A DNA stretch of 39,173 bases from Nitrospiria bacterium. Its GTDB lineage: Bacteria > Nitrospirota > Nitrospiria > DASWJH01. This document shows positions 6,691 through 34,632 of this stretch, in pieces. Within the stretch, counting starts at the first letter, position 1, and each line of letters opens with the position of its first letter. The notes under the pieces are model-generated. The model was not told where the DNA came from and did no database searches. It was given only the letters and a program-made list of their open reading frames with translations. Both the position numbers and the translations under genes were made by a program. Where the stretch lies: NCBI GenBank assembly GCA_036397255.1, contig DASWJH010000007.1, positions 1-39,173 on the forward strand, given 5' to 3'.

Positions 6691-8082
6691 TTAAGAACTA
6701 TCAGGGTAAAACTGGGCAGATTTTTGTGCCTCGGTTTTTCCGAGTTTTCGATATAGTGTTTTTCGATCAATGCCCAAAATTTGAGCGGCCTTATATTTAT
6801 TTCCCCCGGTATGTTTCAACACCTTGGAAATATATTCAAATTCCAATTCCTCCAAGGTCATTTGCTCCTCCAAGGCTTTTTCAAGGGTTACAAAATCATC
6901 CTGCCCCCCGGTAATGGTGGAAGGAAAGTCTTCGGGAATAATCTGCTCTCCCCTCGCCAAGATAACCGCACGCTCAATAGCATTTTCCAATTCCCTCACA
7001 TTCCCCGCCCAGGGATACCGGAGTAAATAAGAAAGAGAAGGCTCACTGATCCCGGTCACCTGCTTTCCGGTTTCCTTTTGATACTTTTTCAGAAAATGGT
7101 AAGCCAAGGGGAGAATATCATTCTTGCGTTCCCGAAGCGGTGGGAGAACAAAATGGATTACGTTCAATCGGTAAAAAAGATCCGCACGAAAGTGGTGCTG
7201 TTTGACTTCCTCCGCAAGATCCGAATTAGAGGCAGCAATAATGCGAACATCCACCTTGGAAAAATGGTTGGCCCCAACCCGGCGGATTTCCCTATCCTGG
7301 AGGACACGCAATAATTTAGCCTGAAGGCTAATGGGAAGCTCACTGATTTCATCTAAAAATAAAGTCCCCCCATTGGCTTCCTCAAATAATCCCGCCTTAT
7401 CTCCTTTGGCATCGGTAAAAGCCCCGCGCATATGACCAAACAGCTCGCTTTCGAGTAATTGCTCCGGAATGGCCGCGCAATTGACCGGAATAAAAGGATG
7501 ACCTTTCCTGGGACTATTATAATGAAGAGCTTTGGCAACCAAATCCTTTCCTGTTCCGCTTTCCCCGGTAATTAAAATATTACTAGCAGTTCCAGCAATC
7601 CGCCGAATCAAATCAAAAATACCCTGCATGGACTTACTTTTCCCAATCAAATTTCCAAATTGATATTCCTTGCCAATCTCTTTTCTCAATCTTGCAACTT
7701 CCTGACGAAGGGCACCTTCCTGGAGGGCTTTTTGTACCCCCAACAGTAACTCGTCTACCTTGAACGGTTTTGGAATATAGTCATAAGCGCCAAGTTTCAT
7801 TGCTTCAATTGCGGATTCAATCGTTCCAAAACCGGTAATGATGATCACCGAAACCCCGGGTTGCTTTCGCTTTACCTGATGCATCAACTCCAACCCTTTC
7901 ATTTCAGGAAGTTCTAGATCTGTAATGACCAAATCAATCTGGTCTGAAAATCGAATTAAGGCCTGTTTACCGTCATTCGCCAATTCAACCGTATGTCCGG
8001 CTTCGGATAAAACATCAAAGAGCAGGCTACACATTTCGGGGTCATCATCCACAACCAGGATTTTCCCATTTAATTTATCCAT
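6691..8082 (-). CDS. NtrC-family sigma54-dependent response regulator
   Basis: 463 residues when started at the ATG at 8082, which has AAGGAG about nine bases upstream; a longer frame to 8175 lacks this support. Domains in order: receiver (1-120, phospho-acceptor Asp55 in VITDLELP, Lys105 in IPKPF), AAA+ sigma54-activating domain (about 145-375, Walker A GESGTGKD 173-180, Walker B GTLFLDE 239-245), and a Fis-type HTH at the C-terminus (NKYKAAQILGIDRKTLYRKL). The sigma54-contact loop reads GAFTDA (220-225) instead of GAFTGA. Its start lies 8 bases inside the histidine kinase gene, so the two are coupled and are cognate partners. Targets are unknown; no clear -24/-12 promoter was found in the window. 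Confidence 0.95.
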   Translation of the reverse strand: MDKLNGKILVVDDDPEMCSLLFDVLSEAGHTVELANDGKQALIRFSDQIDLVITDLELPEMKGLELMHQVKRKQPGVSVIIITGFGTIESAIEAMKLGAYDYIPKPFKVDELLLGVQKALQEGALRQEVARLRKEIGKEYQFGNLIGKSKSMQGIFDLIRRIAGTASNILITGESGTGKDLVAKALHYNSPRKGHPFIPVNCAAIPEQLLESELFGHMRGAFTDAKGDKAGLFEEANGGTLFLDEISELPISLQAKLLRVLQDREIRRVGANHFSKVDVRIIAASNSDLAEEVKQHHFRADLFYRLNVIHFVLPPLRERKNDILPLAYHFLKKYQKETGKQVTGISEPSLSYLLRYPWAGNVRELENAIERAVILARGEQIIPEDFPSTITGGQDDFVTLEKALEEQMTLEELEFEYISKVLKHTGGNKYKAAQILGIDRKTLYRKLGKTEAQKSAQFYPDSS

Positions 8083-16048: not shown

Positions 16049-16587
16049 ACGGCCCCTCCTTCTGATAAAAATTGACTTTTCTTTCGACGTCGATTTGTGA
16101 TTCAGAATTAGAGATAGATTCTAAAATGGAGAGCGAAAATCCTATCACCCCCCGCGCCACCAGGCAAGTTCAAATAAAAGCGACAACAAGGGCCTTTCCC
16201 TTACCATTAAAGGGGAAAAATTTTCCTTCCTCAAGGTCATGGCCCTCCAACTGGAGGATCAAATAAATCCCATGGGTCATGAGACTCGTGCAATTGACCT
16301 GGGTAACTCCAACTTTCTAGTCCAGGCCTGGGCGTAATGGGAGCCGACAAAATCAAAAAACTTGACAAGAGGAATTTCCTTGTGCTAGGAAGTTAATTTT
16401 AATTTTTAAGAGAAAGAGAACGGAAAATACTCCTGACGAAACAATTCAGTATACCGAGGAAAAGCAATACATTTCAATACATTAAGATTTTAAATGCAAA
16501 ATCTGTATCAAAACAACTCGCACAAGCAGTTCAAATCCTTAAAACGAATCAACACCTTTGAACAAATCTAAGGAAGGGGAGAGTCAG
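16049..16587. other. Long intergenic region ahead of the copper cluster
   Basis: 539 bp without a full gene. A plus-strand frame at 16239-16337 (ATG to TAA, open upstream to about 16120) reads like protein (VMALQLEDQINPMGHETRAI, then NSNFLVQAWA) and may be a decayed gene end. A TTGACA at 16362-16367 has no good -10 box at 17 bases. An imperfect inverted repeat, CAAG-AGGAATTTC-CTTG, lies at about 16366-16382. The 9-bp word CAATACATT occurs twice, ten bases apart (16465-16473 and 16475-16483). The promoter of the first oxidase gene must lie here but cannot be pinned down by eye. Confidence 0.45.
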
Positions 16588-19500
16588 ATGATGAAGACCG
16601 TGGTAATAAGAAGCTTTTCATTCATTTCAGTGTTGGCCTTTATGCTGGTCTTAGCGACACAGGGCGCAGCGATCAGCGGTGAAGGGGCCGGCCATGAGCA
16701 TTCCAATACTTCTTCTGCGACCGCTTCGCAGGATACCTCAGCCTGGGAAAAGCAGTTAAAGGCCCAGCTTGAGCGGGAAGAAGCCGCCGAAGGACGGACA
16801 GGTCAGCGAGAACGGGTGAATGCGGCAATGCAGAAATTGATGGACGAGATCGCGAAGGGTTCAGGCGGTCACGCTGCACATACCGGTCAGGGCGCCTTTA
16901 GCGACATGAGCATGATGCAGCAGATGGATCGAAGTTTCTTTCTTGGGCCGACGGGGGTTGCTGAAAGCGTGAGCGCCAGAGGTCAGTGCCCGAAGAACGC
17001 CCCTGTGCGCGAATTTGACATTTCGGCAATCAATGTTGAGACCACGATCAATCAATGGCTCGACTTTTATCCGGGATATATGTATGTCCTGACCGAAAAC
17101 GTTGAAAAGGTCCGTCAAGAGGAAAAGCGGAACAGAGATGCCCGTGAAAAATCAGGTTATGATCCTGGGGCGGTATCCACCGGACTTCAGACCGACATGA
17201 TCCAGCCGCTCAATGTCCGTGCCAACCAAAGTGATTGTGTCAGAATCACCCTGAGAAACAAATTGGACTACGAGGAAGTCAGCCTGCATATCCATGGCTC
17301 CAGCATGATTGTAAAGTCCACGGGAGAAGCGGCGACCATTGCCAATCCGGATTCCATTGTCAAGGAAGATGAGACTCAGGTTTTCGAATGGTATGTCCGG
17401 CCAGGTGAACAGGAAGGGGCCCACGTATTCCACAGCCATGTGGGACGAGAGCAATCCAGTCTTGGGATGATTGGAACCTTTATTGTTGAGCCCATGGGAT
17501 CTCGCTACCTGGATCCGCTTACTGGCAAGGAGACCAAGAGCGGCTGGCAGGTGATGATCGAGAATCCCAATCTTGCGGACTTCAGAGAGTTTGTCATTAT
17601 CTACCACGAGATCGGCGATGAATCCTTCCGGCCTCTGAACCGCCATGGTGAGATGATTCCTCAACGGGATCCGAACACCGATGCCTATCGCCCCTCAGCC
17701 CGCGCCATTAATTATCGAAGCGAACCCTTCGGGGTGAATAACCTGGCTCTTCAGGAAAAATATTTCCACCATGAAGACGAATCATTATCTTACAGTTCCT
17801 ATACCTTTGGGGATGTCCCGACGACAATCCCCCGCTCCTATATGGGAGATCCTGCGAAGTTCCGTCTTGTTCACGGCGGCGGGGAGGTGTTCCATTCTCA
17901 CCATCCCCACGGGGGAACGATTCGATGGCTCCGGCAGCCAAAGGCGGATGGCAAAGAAAGTTTTCTCCTGACCGCTGCAGGCAACGGTCCGGTAAAATAT
18001 CCGGAGGTCCGAACCACATCGGACCGGGTGGATGTCCAGGTGATTGGTCCTTCCGAGGTTCTGGACCTCCAGACAGAATGCGGATCTGGACTCTGTCAAC
18101 AATTAGCGGGTGATTTCCTGTTCCACTGCCATGTGGCGCATCATTATGTGGCCGGAATGTGGGGTTACTGGCGTGTCTATAACACCCTTCAAAATGGGAA
18201 TTATCCGTTAGGAAGCACCGACATCATGCCGCCTTTGCAAGAGCTTCCTGACCGTAAGGGTCGGATGAAGCCTGCCGTAACCTCTGACAAGCTCGTGGGC
18301 AAGACCATGGATTGGTACGACAAGAAGTGGAACATCACTGCCGGCAAGTCGGACTGGTCCAAGCCCATTCCGGATGTCTCCATTAATGACTGGGTCAAGA
18401 TGATGGTCCCTCCGGCTGGACAGCCTGGCCACACCTCGGATGAAAAGGGCCAGATTCTGGCTTATGACGCTACGGTGTGGGACTGGACCTGGGAAGGGAA
18501 AAAGGCGCTCGGTGAGCCGGAGGTGACCGGAACATTTGACTGGCCGAAATACAAGTCCCCCATGCCGGGAAAGCGCCCGCCGATCCTCTTTGAGGCCAAA
18601 ACCGGGAAATTGTCTTGGCCCCATTTCAAACCCCATTTTGGAAAACGTGTCCCATTTGCCCGGCATCATGGACCGGCACCCTGGCTTGAACCGATCCATA
18701 TGGATAAAAATAACGGGGCGTTGCCGAGCGATCCGGGGGGGAAAGGGGCTCTTGGCGAAGAGACGAACCAGCCTGCCCGACCGGGAGAGCAAGGGAGGTG
18801 GAGCCTCTGCCCTGAAAATGCAGGACGGAAGCAATATACCATTCATTTTATCCAAACTCCGATTCAGATTACGAAGGGACTTGGAAAGGAAAAGCCGGTC
18901 GTGGATCCCAATGGGTTACTTTATGTCCTCCATGAAGAGGAGGCGAAGGTCCGTGCCAACCCGGCGGGGGACCAGACGATCCCACTGGTTTACCGCGCCA
19001 GTGTTTATGACTGCGTCGATGTGATCTTAAAGAGCGAGTGGGAAGACAACGACACCACCAACTTCCAGATGTCGAAGATCAACATCCATCCGCATTTCAT
19101 ACAGTTCGACAACCAAGCGTCAGATGGCGTGATCACCGGCTTTTCGTACGAGCAGTCGGTCCGTCCCTTCATCCAGATGACAAAGGAGAAACACAAGGGG
19201 CTTCCAACCCCGATGAATGCGGTTCTTACTGAGGATGTCAAGGCGGGGGCTGTCTCTATTAAAATCAAGATGGCAGAGGGCGCGACCTCGTTCCATGTCG
19301 GGACAGACCTCATGATCGGTGCGGACGAGGTACAGACCTCCGAAATCCGTTGGATCAAAGATATCAAAGGGGACGTCATCACTTTCAGCGAGCCTTTAAA
19401 GTATGACCACAAGAAAGACGAGATTTCGACGGTGGAGTTTGTCCGTTATCGGATGTGGGTGGATGCCGATGTCGGGACCGTCTTCTGGCATGACCATGCC

Positions 19501-21492
19501 TTCGGGGCCACAACATGGCCTCATGGGGGGGTCGGAGCAATGATCGTGGAGCCGGTGGGGGCCACATACCATGATCCAAAGACCGGGGAACCGATTCGGA
19601 GCGGCCCCGTCGCGGACATCCGGTCGACCGAGCCGATCGGCTATGGGGTAAACGGAAGTTTCCGTGAACTGGTCGTGATGCCCCACGACACGGTGCCGTA
19701 TACAGCCCAGGTGGTTACGGAAGGCAATCCCCCGGGACAGCCCATCCAGACCGCGATCGATGCGGGTCAGACCCTCTCGTTCCAGATGCCATATGATCTG
19801 GACAAGGTTGCCGTTCCGATGCTCAACGGGGGAACCCATACCACGGGCGGTGGTTTAAATTTCCGTGCCGAGTCTGTGGCCCGGCGTCTGAAGATCAATC
19901 CAGACGCGTCACTCATTTTCTCCAGCAAGGCTCATCAAGATCCCAGCACCCCACTGCTGCGGGCCTATCTGGGTGACACGGTCGTCTTCCGGCTCCTGCA
20001 TACGTTAATGAATGAAAGTCATACCTGGCATGTGGCGGGCCATGCCTTCCGGACAGAACGTTATGCCGAGAAATCCGACCTGAGGAACGCTCACCACGTG
20101 GGAATTGCAGAACGTTATGATTTGGTCACAAAAGCCGGTGGCGTCCAGCAGATGGCAGGGGATTATCTCCATTACAACGGTCGCGCATCCCACTTGTCTG
20201 AAGGCAGTTGGGGAATTATCCGGGTTTTGGACAAGGAAGTTTCAGATCTGAAGAAGCTTCCGGGGCGTGACGAAATCCCAGCCTCGGCTAAATCTGTTTG
20301 CCCTGCGGATGCCCCGGTGAAGACTTTCAATGTCATTGCGGTAGACCTTGAATTGAATTTTAATAACAACGCCCCGGATGTCATCGAAGTGGACTTTGAC
20401 CGCAAACTGTTGGTTTCCAATCCTCAGGGTAAGATCTTTATGCTAGAAGGAGAAAAATCAAGGGTGGCCACGGATGGTTATCAACCCCTTCCCCTTACAC
20501 TCCATGTCAATGTCGGAGATTGCATTAAGATCAATCTCAAGAATGAGATGAAGGCCAGCCGTGCCTCTTTTAGCGCGGACATGCTGGCATTTGATCCTAA
20601 GGAATCCCATGGGGTCAATGTCGGTTTGAATCCTGGAGATCAAACGGTTCCTCCCGGAAAGGGCCGCACCTATACCTTCTATGCCCATCCAACGTTGGGT
20701 GAAACAGCAGCCCTGGTTTGGGACTGGGGGAACTTCATCAACAACGTCAGAGATGGTCTGTTCGGAGGCATTGTTGTCGGCCCGAAAGGATCAAAATATC
20801 GTGATCCATTGACGGGTGAGGATATTTCACTGAAAAGCTCTTGGATAGCGGATGTGATCGTTGATACTTCTATTCCGGAAAATATCGGTCGTTCCGATTA
20901 CAGAGACGCTTCGCTCTTCTTCCAGGATGAGGATAATATCCTTGGCACATCCTTTATGCCTTACCTCCAGCAGATTGCAGGGTTGGTGGGAGTCAATTAT
21001 CGGAGTGAACCTTGGCTATATCGGGAAGACAATGGATGTGAGCCAGCCACGATGTTTACTCCCTGTGTGGTTGGAGAGGCTGGTCTGGCCACACCAACCA
21101 TCCTGGCACATGCAGGGGATCCGGTGCGGATACGTGTGTTTGGTGCTTTCAACGAGCAGAACCAAATCTTCAGCATCGAGGGTCATGAATGGCCCTTTAA
21201 GCCCGACATGCCCGGTGCGGATATGTTGAGTAGCCTTCAGTTTGGAGGATCGGAATACCTGGATGTCTATTTGAAGGAAGGGGCCGGTGGACCATTTGCC
21301 ATCCCGGGTACCTATATCTGGCAGAACCATCGTATGCCTTATGCCCAGGCCGGGCAATGGGGATATCTACAGGTTCTCCCACTGGGAGACCGGCGGATTC
21401 TTCCACTCAACAGCAGCGGGCTGGGAGGGAAGGTCGCTGAGGGGCCACAGGAAGAAAATGCCGTGGTTCCTGTCTCTTTAAACCAGAAATAG
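16588..21492 (+). CDS. Giant six-domain multicopper oxidase 1 (MofA/MnxG-like)
   Basis: 1,634 residues from the ATG at 16588, preceded by GGGGAG; a TTG ten codons upstream is less likely. Signal peptide at about 1-28 (SVLAFMLVLATQGAAIS), so it acts outside the cytoplasm. Three homologous units each open with a Cys-Pro motif (CPKNAPV at 134, CPENAG at 741, CPADAPV at 1238). Unit 1 has the complete copper set: HIHG (234, 236), HSH (282, 284), HSHHPH (436, 439, 441) and HCHVAHHYVAGM (513-524, with Cys514 and axial Met524). Unit 2 keeps HPH (834), HDH (968) and HTWHVAGH (1145-1151) but has lost the HCH motif. Unit 3 has lost the HxH (SAD at 1329-1331). Size and layout match MofA (about 1,660 residues) and, in domain number, MnxG; both are tied to Mn(II) oxidation. 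The substrate here is not proven. Codons are more GC-rich than in MCO2. Confidence 0.93.
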   Translation: MMKTVVIRSFSFISVLAFMLVLATQGAAISGEGAGHEHSNTSSATASQDTSAWEKQLKAQLEREEAAEGRTGQRERVNAAMQKLMDEIAKGSGGHAAHTGQGAFSDMSMMQQMDRSFFLGPTGVAESVSARGQCPKNAPVREFDISAINVETTINQWLDFYPGYMYVLTENVEKVRQEEKRNRDAREKSGYDPGAVSTGLQTDMIQPLNVRANQSDCVRITLRNKLDYEEVSLHIHGSSMIVKSTGEAATIANPDSIVKEDETQVFEWYVRPGEQEGAHVFHSHVGREQSSLGMIGTFIVEPMGSRYLDPLTGKETKSGWQVMIENPNLADFREFVIIYHEIGDESFRPLNRHGEMIPQRDPNTDAYRPSARAINYRSEPFGVNNLALQEKYFHHEDESLSYSSYTFGDVPTTIPRSYMGDPAKFRLVHGGGEVFHSHHPHGGTIRWLRQPKADGKESFLLTAAGNGPVKYPEVRTTSDRVDVQVIGPSEVLDLQTECGSGLCQQLAGDFLFHCHVAHHYVAGMWGYWRVYNTLQNGNYPLGSTDIMPPLQELPDRKGRMKPAVTSDKLVGKTMDWYDKKWNITAGKSDWSKPIPDVSINDWVKMMVPPAGQPGHTSDEKGQILAYDATVWDWTWEGKKALGEPEVTGTFDWPKYKSPMPGKRPPILFEAKTGKLSWPHFKPHFGKRVPFARHHGPAPWLEPIHMDKNNGALPSDPGGKGALGEETNQPARPGEQGRWSLCPENAGRKQYTIHFIQTPIQITKGLGKEKPVVDPNGLLYVLHEEEAKVRANPAGDQTIPLVYRASVYDCVDVILKSEWEDNDTTNFQMSKINIHPHFIQFDNQASDGVITGFSYEQSVRPFIQMTKEKHKGLPTPMNAVLTEDVKAGAVSIKIKMAEGATSFHVGTDLMIGADEVQTSEIRWIKDIKGDVITFSEPLKYDHKKDEISTVEFVRYRMWVDADVGTVFWHDHAFGATTWPHGGVGAMIVEPVGATYHDPKTGEPIRSGPVADIRSTEPIGYGVNGSFRELVVMPHDTVPYTAQVVTEGNPPGQPIQTAIDAGQTLSFQMPYDLDKVAVPMLNGGTHTTGGGLNFRAESVARRLKINPDASLIFSSKAHQDPSTPLLRAYLGDTVVFRLLHTLMNESHTWHVAGHAFRTERYAEKSDLRNAHHVGIAERYDLVTKAGGVQQMAGDYLHYNGRASHLSEGSWGIIRVLDKEVSDLKKLPGRDEIPASAKSVCPADAPVKTFNVIAVDLELNFNNNAPDVIEVDFDRKLLVSNPQGKIFMLEGEKSRVATDGYQPLPLTLHVNVGDCIKINLKNEMKASRASFSADMLAFDPKESHGVNVGLNPGDQTVPPGKGRTYTFYAHPTLGETAALVWDWGNFINNVRDGLFGGIVVGPKGSKYRDPLTGEDISLKSSWIADVIVDTSIPENIGRSDYRDASLFFQDEDNILGTSFMPYLQQIAGLVGVNYRSEPWLYREDNGCEPATMFTPCVVGEAGLATPTILAHAGDPVRIRVFGAFNEQNQIFSIEGHEWPFKPDMPGADMLSSLQFGGSEYLDVYLKEGAGGPFAIPGTYIWQNHRMPYAQAGQWGYLQVLPLGDRRILPLNSSGLGGKVAEGPQEENAVVPVSLNQK

Positions 21493-24737: not shown

Positions 24738-27700
24738 ATGAGGAAATTCGCAGGAAATTTTCTGGCAGGGATTTTTTTCGCCCTCTTTGCCCTAAACGTA
24801 CAAGGTTTAACCGTTGCCGCTGAAGAAGGGACAACTTCCTCAGAACCTGCAAATGAACAGGAAGCAACCACGCAGGATTGGAAGGGTAAATTGAAGGCCC
24901 AAATTCATATTGAAGACTCCATAGAGGGACGGCCTGCACGAATGTCCCGAATGGATATTATGAATAAAATGGCGGCACAACAGTTTGCCCACGAAAACCA
25001 TGAAGAAAAAAAAGGCACCTTTACGGCCATGGAAGGTCCGGGTCACCAATTGGATATGTTTGACGGGATGATGAAACAGGGCGTACTGCTCGGGCCCGCT
25101 TCCGTTGCTGAGGAAAGCGTCACTTCCAGTGGACGCTGTCCCAAGAGTGCTCCTGTGAAAAAACTCGACATCACCGCCATCAATGTAGAGGTTACTCTTA
25201 ATCAGTGGTTGGATTACTACCCCGGTTATATGTTTGTGCTGACTGAAAACATAGAAAAGGTTCGTGAAGAGGAGAGAGTGAATGCAGAGGCAAGAGACAA
25301 GGAAAATGATCCTGGCGCTGTTTCCAATGGGCTTCAAGGGGATATGATTCAGCCTTTGGTGATTCGCGCAAACCAGGGGGATTGCGTCAACATTACCCTC
25401 CGCAACGAGACCGAATTTGAAGAGCCCGTTGGAATTCATATTCATGGATCGAGCACGCTGATTAAAAAAACCGGGAAGCCGGCCATCGCTTCAAACCCCG
25501 ATACGGTGGTTGAATTCGGAGAGAGCAGAGAATATGAGTGGTACATTGCTCCTGATTTCCAAGAAGGAGCGCTGACCTTTCATAGTCATGGGGATCGGTT
25601 ACAAACGGGTTTAGGGATGGTGGGGACTTTTGTGGTTGAACCCGCAGGATCCACCTACGTTGATCCCTTCACCGGGGGAGAATTAAAAAGCGGATGGGAG
25701 GCAATGATTGCCCATCCGGTCAACAGCGATTTTAGAGAATATGTGATTATCTACCATGAAGTGGGGGATGAATCGTTCCGCCCATTAAGTAAAAATGGAG
25801 AAATGATTCCTCAAAGGGACCCCATTACAGACGCTTATCGTCCAGGGGCCAGGGCCCTAAATTTCAGGAGCGAACCTTTCGGCACTAACAACCTGGCCAC
25901 TCAAAAAGAAAGGTTCGGGTTTGAAGATGAGGCTGAAGCCTATAGCGCCTACACCTTTGGAGATGCGGGAACGCCCATCCCACGTGGATATATCGGGGAC
26001 CCTTCAAAATTCCGATTGGTTCACGGTGGATCGGACATTTTCCATTCCCACCACCCTCATGGGGGAACCATTCGTTGGCAGCGAGACCCCAAGGCCGAGA
26101 AAACCCTTTTCGATGCAGGCCGAAACGGACCGGTAAAGTTCCCTAGAATGCGTTCAAAAAGCGAACGGGTGGACGTTCAGGTTATCGGACCTCAAACAGT
26201 CTTTGATTTAGAACCCGAATGCGGAGCTGGATTGTGCCAACACCTGGCCGCGGACTTCCTGTTCCATTGTCACGTGGCTCACCACTATGTGGCTGGAATG
26301 TGGAGTTATTGGCGAGTGTATAACACACTCCAAATCCCCGGTTTCCAACAGGATATTATGAAGCCCCTGATGGAGCTTCCCGATCGGAAAGGAAAAATGA
26401 AACCGGCGGTGGATTCCACCCAATTGATTGGAAAAACGGTGGATTGGTTTGGAAAGAAATTCAAAATTACCCCGAAAAAAACCGATTGGTCTCAAAACCC
26501 TCCGATGGTTTCTATTAACGATTGGGTAAGCGCCATGCTTCCCGTTCAAGGCCAGCCAGGCCATACGGATGACTGGAGAGGACAAATCATGTCTCACGAT
26601 GCGACGGTCCTTGACTGGGCTTGGGAGAAATCGCCCAAAGGTCTCTTGGCCATGGCAGAAAGGGAAACCGTCCAGGAATGGCCTAAATATTTCCCTCCTG
26701 AAGACCATATGGGAGTTAAGGTTGGCCCCGGGGGTCGGCGAAAAGTGGCTTTTGATCCAAAAACAGGAAAGTTGGCCTGGCCAGCGCTTCAGCCCCACTT
26801 TGGAAAAAGACCACCCTTTGCGAGAAACCATGGGCCTGCTCCTTGGCTTGAACCTTTTCAAATTGAAGAAGGGGGATTTTTACAAAAGGACAATGTGTTT
26901 AATCCCTATTCCGATCCGGGCGGCCCCGGTGCCGGAGGTGGTGTGAGTGGAATCGAAACCACCCGTTTTCCGAGACCCGGCGAGCAAGGTCCTTGGAGCC
27001 TTTGCCCCAGGCAAAGTGACAACATGGCACAGCGAAAACTTTATCGCATTCATGCTCTTGGACAGCTTCCAATCATCTTATCGAAGGGTGACGGAAAAAA
27101 CCCACCGGTCAAAGATGATGATGGGCTCATATACGTGCTGAGGGAAGAACAGGCAGAAATTATGGCCAATCCCGACTTACGCGTTCCCCTGGTCTATCGG
27201 GGAAATGTGTATGACTGCCTCGATGTCATTCTAACCAACGGGTGGCGAGATAGCGTTGAGAACGGCTATGCCAGCAAACTTAACATTCATTCTCATATGT
27301 GGCAATTTGATAATCAGGCCTCCGACGGGGTCATCAGCGGGTTCTCATATGAGCAGGTGATGCGCCCTTATAAAGATGAGCTGATAGATGATAGCCATGG
27401 GTTACCCGCAGCAATGAATGAAAAGCTCTCCAAAAAGGCTAAAGCCGGTAAAGATTACGTGGTCCTGACCAATGAGAAAAAGGCCGCCCGATACCACGTA
27501 GGGACTTTGCTTGGAATCGGCATGGACCAGGTAGAAACATTTGAGATTCGAAGGATCAAGAAAATATCGGGCAAGGAAATTACCTTTACCGCTCCCTTGT
27601 CTTACAACCACGATAAAGGGGAAATTGTCAGCGTGGAGTTCGTTCGGTATCGCTACTATCCCGATGCGGATTTTGGGACCACCTATTGGCATGACCATGC

Positions 27701-29666
27701 CTTCGGGGCGATTTCCTGGCAACATGGGGCCTTCGGAAGTACCATTATCGAACCCCCGGGATCGACATACCATGATCCAAAAACAGGGGATCTAAAAAGA
27801 AGCGGTTACGTGGTGGATATTCATACCAACGAACCCCACTCCATTGATGCCACGGGGAGCTTCCGAGAATTAGTCCTTCACATTCAGGACACATTGTTCT
27901 CCACCGCAAACAGCGTTTCAACGGGTTCTCCCCCTGAAATGCTCCAACAAGCCGCTGCCGCTGCAACAACCCTCCTTTATCCAATGGACAAACAGGATAA
28001 TGTCTTGCTGACGCCAAACCCCTATATCAACGGAGGAACCCATACCACGGGAAGCGCTCTGAACATGAGGTTGGCTCCAATTAACCGGCGTTTGGTTCTC
28101 AACTCGGATCCGTCCCTTGCCTTTAGCAGCAAAATCCATGGAGATCCGGATACGCCATTGTTAACGGCTTATTTAGGGGATCCCATTATGATCCGGAATC
28201 TGGTTACCGCGGTAAACGAAACCCATACGATTCATGTCACGGGGCATTGGTTTAGGTTCCAGCGGTATAATCCCGAATCACAGCCGAGAAGCACCATCCA
28301 TATCGGAATTGCGGAACGTCATGATTTATCCATTCCGGAGGCAGGAGGAGCCCAAAAGATGGCTGGAGACTACCTTTACTATAACGGTCGGGCCTCAAAA
28401 CTTACCGAAGGGAGCTGGGGGTTAATCCGGGTCTTAGATGAACCTTCAGAGAATTTGCAACCGTTGCCGGGGAAAGAAAGTATTCCCCAATCGGCAAAGG
28501 AGGTATGCCCTTCCGCTGCGCCTGTGAAAAACTTCAATGTTCTCGCAGTGGAAAAGGGCCTTGTATTAAACCCGCGGGCGGATGAAACCATTGAGGTAGA
28601 TTTTAATCGGGAAATGTTAATGAGCAATCCCGAAGGAAAGGTATTCGTCCTTGCCGATGAGAAAACAAAGGTCGCTTCAGCCGGTTTCCAGCCCATGCCT
28701 TTGACGCTGCATGTTAATATAGGAGACTGTATCAAGGTTAATTTAAAAAATGAACTCAGCGAAGGGCGGACCTCCTTCCATGCCCATAACTTGGCATACG
28801 ATCCCATGGACTCTCAGGGGATCAATGTGGGGAATAATGAGGGAGATCAAACCATCGGTCCGGGTGAAAGCAAGGTGTACACCTTTTATGCCCACCCTGA
28901 AATTGGGGAAAATGCAGCCCTCATTCAAGACTGGGCCGATGCAAGCATGGCCAACCAACGCGATGGCCTTTTTGGGGCCATTATCATTGGTCCCAGAGGA
29001 TCAACCTACCGGGATCCTGTGACTGGCGAAGATATTTCCCTTAAAAACAGTTGGCGGGCCGATGTCATTGTGGATAGGGGAGTTCCGGAGAATATGAATC
29101 GCGCCAATTATCGGGATTTTTCCCTCTTTTTCCAGGATGAGGACAATATTCTGGGAACCAGCTTTATGCCTTACCTACAAAAGGCTGCGGGAATTTCCGC
29201 TGTCAATTATAAAGCCGAACCTTATGAATTACGTTTTGAAGAAGGATGTGAGCAAAATCGCCTCTTCATTTGTGTTTCGGAGGATGAGGATGGAGATCCG
29301 GCCACACCCATTTTGGAAGCCCACGCAGGAGATCCAGTGGTCATCCATGCCTTTGGGGCCTTTTCAGAACAAAATGGGATTTTTGGCTTAGAAGGGCATC
29401 AATGGCCGGAGGAGCCATTTTTGGCAGGGGCTGACCAAGTTCAAAATTTTGAATTTGGGGGAAGCGAGGTTCTGAATGCTTACACTCAAGCGGGAGGGTC
29501 TTTCTCCATTCCCGGAGATTATCTCTATATGAACCATCGGATGGCCTACATGGAGGCCGGTCAATGGGGCTTCCTTAGGGTCCGGAATCCAGGAGATAAA
29601 AAGATTCTTTCGTTAACCGATACCCGGCCAAGGCTTCGTGCTGTAGGAGTCGGGCTTCAAGACTAA
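24738..29666 (+). CDS. Giant six-domain multicopper oxidase 2 (MofA/MnxG-like)
   Basis: 1,642 residues, ATG at 24738 with GAGAGGA upstream; signal peptide about 1-29 (FLAGIFFALFALNVQGLTVAA). It is co-linear with oxidase 1 over the full length. Unit starts: CPKSAPV (134), CPRQSDN (756), CPSAAPV (1257). Unit 1 copper motifs: HIHG (234, 236), HSH (282, 284), HSHHPH (436, 439, 441), HCHVAHHYVAGM (510-521; Cys511, His516 and Met521 fit the canonical HCH-x3-H-x4-M). Unit 2: HSH (851), HDH (985), HTIHVTGH (1163-1169), no HCH. Unit 3 still has HAH (1348, 1350), unlike oxidase 1. The first unit alone could carry a full type 1 plus trinuclear cluster. Mn(II) oxidation is a hypothesis. A strong terminator follows 22 bp after the stop. 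Confidence 0.93.
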   Translation: MRKFAGNFLAGIFFALFALNVQGLTVAAEEGTTSSEPANEQEATTQDWKGKLKAQIHIEDSIEGRPARMSRMDIMNKMAAQQFAHENHEEKKGTFTAMEGPGHQLDMFDGMMKQGVLLGPASVAEESVTSSGRCPKSAPVKKLDITAINVEVTLNQWLDYYPGYMFVLTENIEKVREEERVNAEARDKENDPGAVSNGLQGDMIQPLVIRANQGDCVNITLRNETEFEEPVGIHIHGSSTLIKKTGKPAIASNPDTVVEFGESREYEWYIAPDFQEGALTFHSHGDRLQTGLGMVGTFVVEPAGSTYVDPFTGGELKSGWEAMIAHPVNSDFREYVIIYHEVGDESFRPLSKNGEMIPQRDPITDAYRPGARALNFRSEPFGTNNLATQKERFGFEDEAEAYSAYTFGDAGTPIPRGYIGDPSKFRLVHGGSDIFHSHHPHGGTIRWQRDPKAEKTLFDAGRNGPVKFPRMRSKSERVDVQVIGPQTVFDLEPECGAGLCQHLAADFLFHCHVAHHYVAGMWSYWRVYNTLQIPGFQQDIMKPLMELPDRKGKMKPAVDSTQLIGKTVDWFGKKFKITPKKTDWSQNPPMVSINDWVSAMLPVQGQPGHTDDWRGQIMSHDATVLDWAWEKSPKGLLAMAERETVQEWPKYFPPEDHMGVKVGPGGRRKVAFDPKTGKLAWPALQPHFGKRPPFARNHGPAPWLEPFQIEEGGFLQKDNVFNPYSDPGGPGAGGGVSGIETTRFPRPGEQGPWSLCPRQSDNMAQRKLYRIHALGQLPIILSKGDGKNPPVKDDDGLIYVLREEQAEIMANPDLRVPLVYRGNVYDCLDVILTNGWRDSVENGYASKLNIHSHMWQFDNQASDGVISGFSYEQVMRPYKDELIDDSHGLPAAMNEKLSKKAKAGKDYVVLTNEKKAARYHVGTLLGIGMDQVETFEIRRIKKISGKEITFTAPLSYNHDKGEIVSVEFVRYRYYPDADFGTTYWHDHAFGAISWQHGAFGSTIIEPPGSTYHDPKTGDLKRSGYVVDIHTNEPHSIDATGSFRELVLHIQDTLFSTANSVSTGSPPEMLQQAAAAATTLLYPMDKQDNVLLTPNPYINGGTHTTGSALNMRLAPINRRLVLNSDPSLAFSSKIHGDPDTPLLTAYLGDPIMIRNLVTAVNETHTIHVTGHWFRFQRYNPESQPRSTIHIGIAERHDLSIPEAGGAQKMAGDYLYYNGRASKLTEGSWGLIRVLDEPSENLQPLPGKESIPQSAKEVCPSAAPVKNFNVLAVEKGLVLNPRADETIEVDFNREMLMSNPEGKVFVLADEKTKVASAGFQPMPLTLHVNIGDCIKVNLKNELSEGRTSFHAHNLAYDPMDSQGINVGNNEGDQTIGPGESKVYTFYAHPEIGENAALIQDWADASMANQRDGLFGAIIIGPRGSTYRDPVTGEDISLKNSWRADVIVDRGVPENMNRANYRDFSLFFQDEDNILGTSFMPYLQKAAGISAVNYKAEPYELRFEEGCEQNRLFICVSEDEDGDPATPILEAHAGDPVVIHAFGAFSEQNGIFGLEGHQWPEEPFLAGADQVQNFEFGGSEVLNAYTQAGGSFSIPGDYLYMNHRMAYMEAGQWGFLRVRNPGDKKILSLTDTRPRLRAVGVGLQD

Positions 29667-31926: not shown

Positions 31927-32020
31927 GGCCACCGATAAGAGTACACCATCTGAAAGGATGGGTCACAAAGCCTAGGACCCTTAATTTATAAAAAAGTTAA
32001 GGGCGGCCAGGCTGCCGAAG
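31927..32020 (+). promoter_or_regulatory. Cyclic di-GMP-I (GEMM) riboswitch
   Basis: The core follows the GEMM-I pattern: a first hairpin CCATCT-GAAA-GGATGG with the GAAA tetraloop (31947-31961), the linker GTCACAAAGCC, then a second arm with CCCTTAA ... TTAAGGG (31978-32002) and the tetraloop-receptor side GGCCAGGCTGCCG (32004-32017). It lies about 140 bases before the start of the spore-coat-U-like gene on the same strand and is followed by a terminator, so it should switch that gene by c-di-GMP. Confidence 0.85.
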
Positions 32021-32038
32021 TGGTTGCAGGCAAAAGAC

Positions 32039-32078
32039 AAAGGCCCCTGCTCTTATCCTGACCTGGGCTTTTTTTTTT
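32039..32078 (+). terminator. Riboswitch-linked intrinsic terminator
   Basis: AAAGGCCC (32039-32046) pairs with GGGCTTT (32065-32071, one G-U pair), followed by a T run to 32078. An alternative pairing, GCAGG (about 32026-32030) with CCTGC (32046-32050), would compete with it, a plausible anti-terminator. Confidence 0.6.
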
Positions 32079-32158
32079 CGGATCATCGGAGATGGCTTAA
32101 TGAAATGGGATTTAAATGGATGGATTATTAAGATGACGTCACTTAAAAGGAGGAAAAA

Positions 32159-32425
32159 ATGAGAAAGATAAAACTTCTATTTTTCACAATTGGGGGAATT
32201 TTTTTGGTGAGTGAGCTAGCCATGGCAGCGGATACCGCCACGATTAACATTCAAGCGACGGTTCAAGGAACCTGTACCATTCAATCTTCTCCAGCGCTTA
32301 TGGATTTCGGGAACATCGATCCTTCAACCTTTACAGATACCGCGTTGCCGGGTTCGGTTGTTTTCCGTTGCACACAAAACGAAGCGTACAGCATTGACTT
32401 TGCAGGTCAGGTAGCCCCTGTTTGA
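32159..32425 (+). pseudogene. Spore coat U / pilin-like secreted protein, truncated by an IS110 remnant
   Basis: AAAAGGAGG stands five bases before the ATG. The product begins with a signal peptide (about 1-23, FFTIGGIFLVSELAMAA) and the start of an SCPU domain: TINIQATVQGTCTIQSSP, then MDFGNID and VVFRCTQNEAYSIDF with two Cys for the expected disulfide. Normal members have 150-180 residues, usually in chaperone-usher-type pilus operons. At about codon 83 (near 32406) it runs into insertion-element sequence and stops after GQVAPV. The missing C-terminal part was not found beyond the elements. The riboswitch in front indicates that c-di-GMP once controlled surface attachment through it. Confidence 0.8.
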
Positions 32426-33264
32426 TCACTAATCCCCTTGATCGATGTGATGATCCCCAGGTCATCAATGACCGTTGATTCACAAAACTGAACGAGCATC
32501 TCAGTGATTTTATTCTGTCTTTCAATCAGATACCAAAGTGTTGAGATCTTCTCCGGCAGAATTACTTCTTTTGCCGCATTCACAGATGCCACCGATCCTC
32601 GGGCCGCTGAGAGAATATCCTTTGGGGAAACAGAGACTCTTTTTCGCTGATCGGAAGGAACCAGTGCTTTTGCAATTGCCTTGGATGGGGCGGCTTGAAT
32701 AAGACGGGCTGAAGGGAATTTTAAAAGAAAATTAAGCATGGTTTGCGAAAAAAGGTTACAAAGGGATTCCAGTTCCGGAAAAGTGCTCTGAAGGATTCTC
32801 TTGATATCGTTCTTTATACCGGAGATCAAAACCGCTAAAGACTCTCTTTCTCTAGCCAGATCTTTAAGGTCCTGGGTATCTTGTGGAGAGGATATTTTGG
32901 ACAAAGAATCTTTGTGGGCCACAAGAAATTTGGCGATCGTCATGGCATCTTTTTTGTCGGTCTTGGTCTTCCTCAAAGAAAGTTTGGTGAAATTGGAAAT
33001 GAGAAGGAGATTAATCACAATTGTTTTTATTGCTTTGGATACAAGAAAAGGATACAGATTCATGTGGTAACATCCTGTAGACTCCATGGCAATCATGACC
33101 TTTGAGAGATCTTTACAGTGAGAGGTAATAGAGCTTAGAAGATCAGAAAAGCCTTTGGCATCCATATCAAAGCAGAGATAGAAAATCTTCTCACCCTTGC
33201 TATCAATCCCTTGGGCGGAGGAGCAATCCTTAGAGACATCAATGCCCACATAAAGGGTATGCAC
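32407..33264 (-). pseudogene. IS110-family transposase, C-terminally truncated
   Basis: The true start is a GTG at 33264 with GGAGGTG directly upstream; a longer frame to 33387 has no such signal. The 285 residues begin with YVGIDVSKD, holding the first acidic residue of the RuvC-like DEDD domain. IAMESTGCYHMNLYPFL, KTKTDKKDAMTIAKFL and a coiled-coil region follow. It ends at IKGISDQTGAT, precisely where the Transposase_20 domain with its catalytic Ser should continue for another hundred or so residues. It is therefore inactive. Confidence 0.85.
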
Positions 33265-33306
33265 TGTTTCACCTCCTTCAAATTGGTTTACAGATAAGGC
33301 AGGAAA

Positions 33307-33379
33307 TGTCTCCCGACCAAACCTCCATCGTGACAAGGGTTCTATAGACCCAATCAACCTACCATGGTTTTGGGAGACA
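33307..33379 (-). ncRNA. Candidate IS110 bridge RNA core
   Basis: Upstream of the transposase start, TGTCTCCC (33307-33314) and GGGAGACA (33372-33379) are perfect complements that enclose an inner hairpin GGGT-7-ACCC (33337-33351). IS110 elements are known to encode a structured bridge RNA in the noncoding end before the transposase. The location and nested structure fit, but loop-to-target pairing was not tested. Confidence 0.4.
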
Positions 33380-33514
33380 GGGAACACACTACAAAAAGGA
33401 TTCTATGACCCAGGTGAAAAGCAAGTTCTCCTGCCCTTGCAACTTTGATTCTCGAACCTTATATCATAAATTGATATATAGCTGCGCATAATTAAATGGA
33501 TATGTTATTTTAAA

Positions 33515-33547
33515 CATGCTATCCTGTAATAGGAGGTGGATAGCATG
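33515..33547 (+). promoter_or_regulatory. Hairpin that holds the ribosome site of the IS630 transposase
   Basis: CATGCTATCC (33515-33524) and GGATAGCATG (33538-33547) form a perfect 10-bp stem. The Shine-Dalgarno AGGAGG lies in the loop and the ATG in the stem. Such a structure would lower translation from transcripts that read through from outside. Confidence 0.65.
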
Positions 33548-34096
33548 CGTGCACGATTTCTTCAAGGACATTGGAAGAAGATCAAGAAGCTCCTCAGCTT
33601 GAAGAAGGAAGCCGAGCAAGATGGAGAATATCGGGTGGCTAAGAGGATCCATGCGGTAGCGTTGAACATGGAGGGACGGACCAGCATCGAAATCTCTGAC
33701 GTGTTGAAGGCTCCACGATCTGCCGTTTCTTTGTGGTTGAAGAACTATGAAGGTCATGGATTGGAAGGCATTCTGGAAGGTCAGCGGTCGGGAAGGCCCC
33801 CTGAATTGGCTCCACAGCAACGAGTCACACTGGCAGACATCATAGAGAGCGGGCCGGTCGCCTATGGCTTTCTCTCGGGAGTCTGGACCTCTCCGATGGT
33901 GGCCAGAGTCATCCGCGAAGAATTTGGTGTCGAGTATCATCCAGGTCATGTGAGAAAGCTTCTGTATGAACTTGGGTTTTCGGTCCAACGGCCCAAGCGA
34001 ATATTGGCGAAGGCTGATGAGGCGCAACGATCTCGCTGGACACGGCACACTTATCCCCACATTAAAAAAAAGCCAAAGCAGAAGGGGCGGCCTTGA
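33545..34096 (+). CDS. IS630 transposase, first frame (HTH part)
   Basis: ATG at 33545 with AGGAGG six bases before; 183 residues. Two helix-turn-helix segments are visible (ISDVLKAPRSAVSLWLKNYE and MVARVIREEFGVEYHPGHVRKLL). The frame ends with KKKPKQKGRP after an A8 run (34063-34070). In that run AAA AAA AAG gives the slippery heptamer A_AAA_AAG in the right phase. A -1 slip leads into KAKAEGAALIHDDEASF, the normal IS630 join to the DDE domain, so the active enzyme is probably a frameshift fusion. Confidence 0.88.
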   Translation: MRARFLQGHWKKIKKLLSLKKEAEQDGEYRVAKRIHAVALNMEGRTSIEISDVLKAPRSAVSLWLKNYEGHGLEGILEGQRSGRPPELAPQQRVTLADIIESGPVAYGFLSGVWTSPMVARVIREEFGVEYHPGHVRKLLYELGFSVQRPKRILAKADEAQRSRWTRHTYPHIKKKPKQKGRP

Positions 34097-34602
34097 TCCA
34101 CGACGATGAAGCCAGTTTCCGGCAGGATTCAACCCTCTACCAGACTTGGTCGAGGTTAGGATGCCAGCCGCTTATTCCCGTAACGGGTCAAAGAAAAAAC
34201 TTGAAGGTTTTTGGCGCCGTGGATCTTTTCGCTGCCCGATTCCTCTATAAATTTGCAGAGGTCTTTAATGCCAAAACGTACATGGCCTATCTGGAGCAGA
34301 TCGCCAGAGCCTACTTTCCCCGGAAAACTGTTCTTATCCAAGACAACGCTTCTTACCACAAAGACAAGAACGTCTGGTTATGGTTTGGAGAAAATCGCAA
34401 ATGGCTGACCGTTCACAACCTGCCTCCCTACTGCCCAGAACTTAACGCAACCGAGCGACTTTGGCATCATACCCGCCTGACCGGAACACACAACCGCTAT
34501 TTCACAACGATAGATGAGCTTCATGACACTGTCTCCCGTGTGCTCAAAAGCATCCAAAGACGTCCTGAACAAATTCGAGGCTATCTTAAACCATATTGTT
34601 AA
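34093..34602 (+). CDS. IS630 transposase, second frame (DDE domain)
   Basis: 169 residues open in the -1 frame relative to the first; its nominal TTG overlaps the TGA of the first frame (TTGA). It carries the catalytic triad of the IS630/mariner superfamily: Asp in IHDDEASF, Asp in VLIQDNASYH, and Glu in PELNATERLWH. The C-terminus is complete (RGYLKPYC). It is expressed most likely as a fusion by -1 frameshifting, or by reinitiation at the overlap. Confidence 0.88.
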   Translation: MIHDDEASFRQDSTLYQTWSRLGCQPLIPVTGQRKNLKVFGAVDLFAARFLYKFAEVFNAKTYMAYLEQIARAYFPRKTVLIQDNASYHKDKNVWLWFGENRKWLTVHNLPPYCPELNATERLWHHTRLTGTHNRYFTTIDELHDTVSRVLKSIQRRPEQIRGYLKPYC

Positions 34603-34632
34603 TATGTCTATTTATTTATGCGCAGTTATATA

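What the first reader, a model, noticed from the sequence alone, without database searches (positions are those of the whole stretch)
31927..33474. c-di-GMP riboswitch controlling a pilin/spore-coat-U gene that was destroyed by an insertion element
A clear GEMM-I aptamer with terminator leads into a signal-peptide SCPU gene that stops at an IS110 border. The regulator part is intact while the target is lost, so c-di-GMP would now drive a transcript into the antisense strand of the IS110 transposase. It points to recent loss of a surface-attachment operon.
Basis: partly seen in the sequence, partly recalled or inferred. Interest (0 to 1): 0.6.

Follow-up and report, generated by a model that had tools for sequence, protein, structure and literature searches.

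The report
Orphan cGAMP riboswitch, pilus operon deleted
An uncultured Nitrospirota-like bacterium keeps an intact RNA switch that, by its key base, probably senses the signal cGAMP rather than c-di-GMP, although the pilus genes it once controlled are lost; two relatives show the same kind of leftover switch.

Summary
The riboswitch is real: RF01051 at 31930-32019 +, 55.6 bits, cut-off 35. Its specificity base (residue 20; numbering recalled) is A, not G, which points to 3',3'-cGAMP. The genome carries a GacA-like Hypr cyclase. Across 58 genomes of the class, A20 riboswitches track Ser-type GGDEF proteins (21 of 22 genomes with A20 against 8 of 36 without). The first aptamer strand can pair over 10 bp with the terminator region (0 of 500 shuffles as good), so ligand would close the gene (OFF, inferred). 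Four relatives have such a leader before a pilin-pilin-chaperone-usher operon. Here the first pilin stops after about 82 codons, and no usher or second SCPU remains in the genome. Two relatives, G004 and G035, also keep the leader without the operon. Ligand, OFF logic and junction still need experiments or reads.

The parts
31930..32019 (+). GEMM-I aptamer (RF01051); residue 20 = A at 31940, pair 22-45 = U31942-A31965, A47 at 31967, C92 at 32015 (Vc2 numbering recalled)
   Evidence: U-A at 22-45 in 5 of the 7 listed riboswitches without C at 22
31934..31943 (+). first aptamer strand GATAAGAGTA, anti-terminator arm a
   Evidence: 10-bp complement, 0 of 500 shuffles as good
32048..32057 (+). TGCTCTTATC inside the terminator, anti-terminator arm b
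   Evidence: same letters in G019:C52 and G004:C61
32034..32078 (+). terminator hairpin with T tract
   Evidence: missed, loop too long for that scan
32147..32153 (+). ribosome-binding site AAGGAGG
   Evidence: sequence
32159..32425 (+). 88-codon ORF: signal peptide and first half of an SCPU pilin (about 82 codons, to about 32404) plus 6 codons read from the IS110 side
32401..33474 (-). IS110-derived stretch, broken inside the transposase (ORF 32407-33387; DEDD domain only)
33475..34632 (+). IS630-type element: two ORFs (33536-34096, 34093-34602) between terminal inverted repeats (21 of 23 alike), one copy in the genome

Best explanation
The leader at 31930-32078 is an intact GEMM-I riboswitch of the A20 (cGAMP) subclass, of the same kind as the leader of a chaperone-usher pilus operon in other Nitrospiria. 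Shown: the aptamer, A20/A47/C92, the terminator, the 10-bp complementarity, the operon behind such a leader in four relatives, and its absence here. Inferred: 3',3'-cGAMP, made by the genome's GacA-like Hypr GGDEF protein, binds the aptamer and holds its first strand, so the terminator forms and transcription stops; without ligand that strand pairs with the terminator region and the pilus genes are read (OFF switch). Inferred: with an IS110 element resident in or beyond the operon, a deletion or recombination fused codon 82 of the first pilin to the middle of the IS110 transposase and removed the rest. The switch now governs an 88-codon fragment and antisense of a dead transposase. My confidence by step: riboswitch 0.98, operon lost here 0.9, cGAMP type 0.75, deletion rather than simple insertion 0.75, OFF logic 0.55.
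For: Aptamer 55.6 bits. A20 in 7 of 16 own and 78 of 151 listed riboswitches, with 72 G and 1 C, so it is a class and not decay. Ser348-type GGDEF on C96, best match 6d9m (Geobacter GacA) at 3.9e-48, next 4.6e-34, with GGDEF and Phe at the cross-dimer site. A20 and Ser-GGDEF go together: 21/1/8/28, p 4.5e-8 not corrected for kinship; 7 of 7 families with A20 against 1 of 6 without. Anti-terminator: 0 of 500 shuffles; favoured by 6.4 kcal/mol in a transcript cut before the terminator's 3' arm; compensated change in G035:C4. Nearest of 150 riboswitches is that of the intact operon in G019, 81% in the aptamer. Operon: SCPU, SCPU, PapD, usher, SCPU, sigma-54 activator. No usher, one SCPU in the genome. 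Transposase broken internally. Leaders without operon in G004 and G035.
Against: Residue 20 is a selectivity factor, not a hard filter (PMC9262584, passage), and one Geobacter GEMM-Ib responds to both ligands (PMC6456294, passage). Full-length minimum-energy folds do not settle the logic: (anti-terminator present; aptamer and terminator present) differ with the ends chosen; folding ignores pseudoknots and ligand. 27 of 35 A20 riboswitches with separate terminators do not pass the anti-terminator test. All Geobacter GEMM-Ib genes reported behave as ON. 0 sigma-70 promoters found at the leader. The window pilin is nearer to G017 (40%), whose riboswitch is G20, than to G019 (28%). The state before the deletion was not found; reads are missing.
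Confidence: 0.5

Rival explanations
1. It is an ordinary c-di-GMP riboswitch, or binds both ligands, despite A20, as the Rfam name and the first reader say.
For: RF01051 is named c-di-GMP-I; residue 20 is described as a selectivity factor rather than a hard filter; the leaders before the intact operon in G012, G017 and G029 have G20.
Against: 78 of 151 listed riboswitches have A and only 1 has another non-G base; A20 goes with Ser-GGDEF genomes; the family with 7 GEMM-I genomes without Ser-GGDEF has only G20.
Confidence: 0.2
2. The switch is ON: ligand binding favours read-through, as in Geobacter.
For: Geobacter GEMM-Ib genes fall when the cGAMP synthase is deleted; 42 of 78 A20 switches of the class have the ON-type terminator arm inside the aptamer.
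Against: In the window the terminator starts about 14 bases after the aptamer and is compatible with it, while the alternative pairing uses residues 20-22 of the binding core.
Confidence: 0.3
3. IS110 inserted straight into the pilin and was itself truncated later.
For: The junction lies within the pilin gene.
Against: It needs two events at one point; one deletion from the pilin into an IS110 downstream explains both truncations. No operon remnant lies beyond the elements. An internal deletion of about 5.35 kb with no IS at the junction removed the same operon in G004.
Confidence: 0.15
4. The pilin-IS110 junction is an assembly or binning artefact.
For: Draft of 122 contigs; mobile elements at the junction; no reads available.
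Against: IS630 is single-copy and the only other IS110 piece is 83% alike and lacks this part, so no repeat is there to misjoin; the genome lacks usher and further SCPU anyway.
Confidence: 0.1

Closest known systems
GEMM-Ib (cGAMP-I) riboswitches of Geobacter with the Hypr enzyme GacA (PMC6456294 and PMC8835794, passages read; Kellenberger 2015 not held; Nelson 2015 recalled only)
   Same: GEMM-I fold with A20, transcription terminator, Hypr GGDEF with Ser and non-Arg cross-dimer residue in the same genome, tandem copies, c-di-GMP-type copies beside them
   Different: Other phylum; OFF-type platform inferred here while reported Geobacter ones are ON; target is a chaperone-usher pilus operon, now lost
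Cd1 c-di-GMP-I riboswitch of Clostridioides difficile, an OFF switch (PMC9262584, passages read)
   Same: Ligand-bound aptamer compatible with the terminator; anti-terminator costs the aptamer its binding ability
   Different: c-di-GMP ligand and flagellar target there; A20 here
SCPU-type (spore coat U) chaperone-usher operons
   Same: SCPU, SCPU, PapD chaperone, usher, SCPU order in relatives
   Different: Only half of the first pilin is left in the window genome
IS110 and IS630 elements
   Same: DEDD domain; HTH plus DDE_3 with terminal inverted repeats
   Different: The IS110 copy is broken and lacks Transposase_20

Membership tests
GEMM-I (RF01051) | covariance-model score at or above gathering score over the full model | tested here: met
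   55.6 against 35 bits, model 1-87 of 87
GEMM-Ib / cGAMP-I | A at residue 20 with A47 and C92 kept | tested here: met
   residue numbering recalled
GEMM-Ib / cGAMP-I | prefers 3',3'-cGAMP over c-di-GMP | not testable with these tools
   needs binding assay
GEMM-Ib / cGAMP-I | cGAMP-making Hypr GGDEF enzyme in the genome | tested here: met
   L038: Ser, GGDEF, Phe; best hit 6d9m; activity not testable
OFF-type transcriptional riboswitch | anti-terminator that excludes the ligand-bound aptamer, terminator compatible with it | tested here: inconclusive
   complement 0 of 500, truncated transcript favours it, full-length folds differ
SCPU chaperone-usher operon | SCPU pilin gene | tested here: met
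   PF05229 29.0 bits, cut-off 22.4, first 58 of 138 positions only
SCPU chaperone-usher operon | chaperone and usher genes | tested here: not met
   no usher in the genome, no chaperone or usher similarity in the window
IS110 element | DEDD domain followed by Transposase_20 domain | tested here: not met
   PF01548 only; C12 relative has PF02371
IS630 element | HTH plus DDE_3 transposase and terminal inverted repeats | tested here: met
   whether the two ORFs work by frameshift was not tested

The most novel reading that the evidence does not exclude
Nitrospiria run a cGAMP network with both ON- and OFF-type A20 riboswitches; the switch before one pilus operon differs in ligand type between lineages (G20 or A20); and the leader outlives the operon in three lineages because the terminated leader RNA of about 150 bases, which binds the messenger, still does something, for instance as a messenger sink or a small RNA.
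Probability: 0.1. Interest if true: 0.8.

Novelty: new variant of a known kind. Interest (0 to 1): 0.55.

Why it matters
It suggests a cGAMP signalling system (Hypr synthase plus A20 riboswitches) in several families of Nitrospirota, outside the Geobacter-type bacteria in which the held papers describe the riboswitches, and an OFF-type version of the cGAMP riboswitch. Leaders of one operon with G20 in some lineages and A20 in others give a natural pair for testing how a riboswitch changes its ligand. The leftover leaders show that regulatory RNA can outlast the genes it served, a warning when regulons are drawn from riboswitches alone.

Tried and rejected
Simple IS110 insertion at 32406: rejected, the transposase is cut inside its coding frame. 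Operon remnants beyond the mobile elements: only the SCPU fragment was found; the hit at 6736-7896 is a separate sigma-54 response regulator, about 40-43% alike. Promoter and terminator consensus scan at the leader: 0 found each. G025 as a further operon loss: dropped, its regulator lies at a contig end. Rfam's c-di-GMP-I-GGC label for the C12 copy: not adopted, its residue 47 is A. Ser codons TCN at the Hypr position: 4 of 58 genomes matched, none in a GGDEF frame. L040 as cGAMP synthase: set aside, Ser with GGEEF is the pairing described as unable to bind substrate. Pilin relatives outside the class (L095, L096, L098): no GEMM-I at gathering level in 3 of 3. Paper searches: cGAMP + riboswitch + Nitrospir listed 1 paper, on Leptospirales, not opened; Manganitrophus + c-di-GMP listed 0; riboswitch + c-di-GMP + chaperone-usher listed 8, none opened.

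Limits of counts: one search listed 151 matches, all of which I used, and said that more were not listed; its strict filter may lose weak ones. In 5 of the 151 my pattern did not read residue 47. One search tested 87 of 151 (separate terminator by an automatic rule); 51 ON-type and 13 without a terminator were left out, and some tandem ON-type copies are misfiled as separate, for example own C46:23239. Of 35 GGDEF hits my pattern printed 22 lines, 21 distinct; the rest were not read for the Ser position there.

Full report
What is there. The window is the whole contig C7 of a 3.35-Mb draft genome in 122 contigs, 97.5% complete. Named records of its relatives are Nitrospirota/Nitrospiria MAGs, so the window most likely comes from class Nitrospiria; this is inferred. 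The GEMM-I aptamer at 31930-32019 scores 55.6 bits, cut-off 35. A T-tract hairpin lies at 32034-32078, a ribosome-binding site at 32147-32153, and an 88-codon ORF at 32159-32425 whose residues 26-82 match positions 2-58 of the 138 of SCPU.

The junction. SCPU similarity runs to about 32395-32404. From about 32401-32409 on, the minus strand reads as an IS110-type transposase with PF01548 and no PF02371. Its only relative in the genome, at the start of contig C12, is 83% alike over residues 264-326, goes on past the window's break and has Transposase_20. The window copy is therefore cut inside its reading frame. An IS630-type element with terminal repeats alike in 21 of 23 bases occupies 33475-34632, one copy in the genome. 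No chaperone or usher similarity is found in the window, no usher in the genome, and no second SCPU. One deletion between the pilin and an IS110 further down explains both truncations; this is inference.

The ligand. In the window it is A. Of 16 GEMM-I in the genome, 7 have A and 9 have G. Of 151 listed riboswitches in 35 genomes of the class, own included, 78 have A, 72 G and 1 C. A modelling paper reports that G20A GEMM-I binds cGAMP (PMC6274999, passages).

The messenger. Of 21 distinct GGDEF domains read by my pattern, two carry Ser at the Hypr position. One, on C96, has GGDEF and Phe at the cross-dimer site, and its best match among solved structures is the Geobacter GacA domain 6d9m (3.9e-48, next 4.6e-34). 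The other has GGEEF, the pairing described as too far apart to bind substrate (PMC6456294, passage). A DNA pattern for ND..GH..GS with AGY matched 30 of 58 genomes; one locus per genome was translated, and 29 of 30 have a GGDEF motif, the exception being G037. With TCN it matched 4 of 58, none a GGDEF. Genomes with a listed A20: 22, of which 21 have Ser-GGDEF (the miss, G014, is 82% complete). Of the other 36, 8 have it. Fisher p is 4.5e-8 without correction for kinship; by family, 7 of 7 against 1 of 6, p 0.005. The largest family, 22 genomes, has 7 with listed GEMM-I, all G20, and no Ser-GGDEF.

The logic. The first aptamer strand GATAAGAGTA (31934-31943) can pair over 10 bp with TGCTCTTATC (32048-32057), which sits inside the terminator; 0 of 500 shuffles did as well. 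In a transcript cut before the terminator's 3' arm this pairing beats the kept aptamer by 6.4 kcal/mol, and by 14.6, 9.3 and 7.3 in G019, G004 and own C12. The strand holds residues 20-22, so binding and this anti-terminator exclude each other, and ligand should favour termination. Against this, folds of longer stretches disagree with their ends: one search gives the anti-terminator, aptamer helices with the terminator hairpin, a third structure. Of 87 riboswitches with separate terminators, 8 of 35 A20, 0 of 51 G20 and 0 of 1 C20 pass at 5 or fewer of 500; G035:C4 has a compensated change (GATAAAAG/CTTTTATC) at 6 of 500, and a G20 copy, G017:C71, reaches 8 of 500. By contrast 42 of 78 A20 switches have the terminator arm inside the aptamer, the ON design, among them four own copies on C46 and C48 near FN3-like secreted proteins. 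So one genome may use both signs for one ligand.

The lost operon. A homologue of the pilin start occurs in 4 of the 57 other genomes searched, and all four have GEMM-I directly upstream. A search of named genomes gave 7 loci: these four, and three from other groups without GEMM-I. In G017 the operon is SCPU, SCPU, PapD chaperone, usher, SCPU, sigma-54 activator; gene order is alike in G012 and G019, while G029 is seen only into the usher. Residue 20 is G in G012, G017 and G029 and A in G019. Of 150 other riboswitches the window's is nearest to that of G019, 81% in the aptamer, although its pilin is nearer to G017's (40% against 28%).

Other orphans. In G004 the locus is collinear with G019 (blocks of 69% to 81% identity), but about 5.35 kb from the first codons of the pilin to codon about 209 of the sigma-54 activator is gone, with riboswitch, terminator and ribosome-binding site kept. 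In G035 the leader is 73-76% alike to those of G012 and G017, of the same genus, but no operon protein is found in 18 kb around it; a 29-codon ORF follows. In these two orphans the aptamer is better kept than the upstream stretch: 79% against 64% (G004-G019) and 86% against 63% (G035-G017). That fits selection on the leader for most of the time since the lineages parted; it does not show selection after the loss.

Verdict. The parts are known kinds. The combination (A20 riboswitches with a Hypr enzyme in Nitrospirota, an OFF-type platform, leaders outliving an operon) did not turn up in the papers I could search, which are an open-access subset without the founding papers. Nothing here was tested at the bench.

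Noticed in passing
window 16558-21492 and 24738-29666 (+): Two very large multicopper-oxidase-like proteins (1644 and 1642 aa) with small carboxypeptidase-regulatory-like proteins between them; such giant oxidases are a lead for metal (perhaps manganese) oxidation, which is recall and not tested.
   Followed up: no
L001 (G000:C12:13758-13843 -), G017:C21, G012:C50, G035:C40, G035:C72: The same OFF-type A20 platform, with CTTATC inside the terminator, stands before small lytic-transglycosylase-like genes in several genomes.
   Followed up: partly
L002-L004 (G000:C48) and L008, L009, L011 (G000:C46): Clusters of three GEMM-I riboswitches within about 1 kb, with ON-type terminators, near FN3-like secreted proteins.
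   Followed up: partly
G022:C37:64744-64834 (L054): The only riboswitch of 151 with C at residue 20; its ligand is open.
   Followed up: no
window 34063-34096: The two IS630 ORFs overlap by 4 bases just after a run of eight A, which could be a programmed frameshift site.
   Followed up: no
L182/L237 (G035:C8), about 105 bases after the aptamer: A 29-codon ORF with a strong ribosome-binding site follows the orphan leader in G035 and may be a small protein.
   Followed up: no
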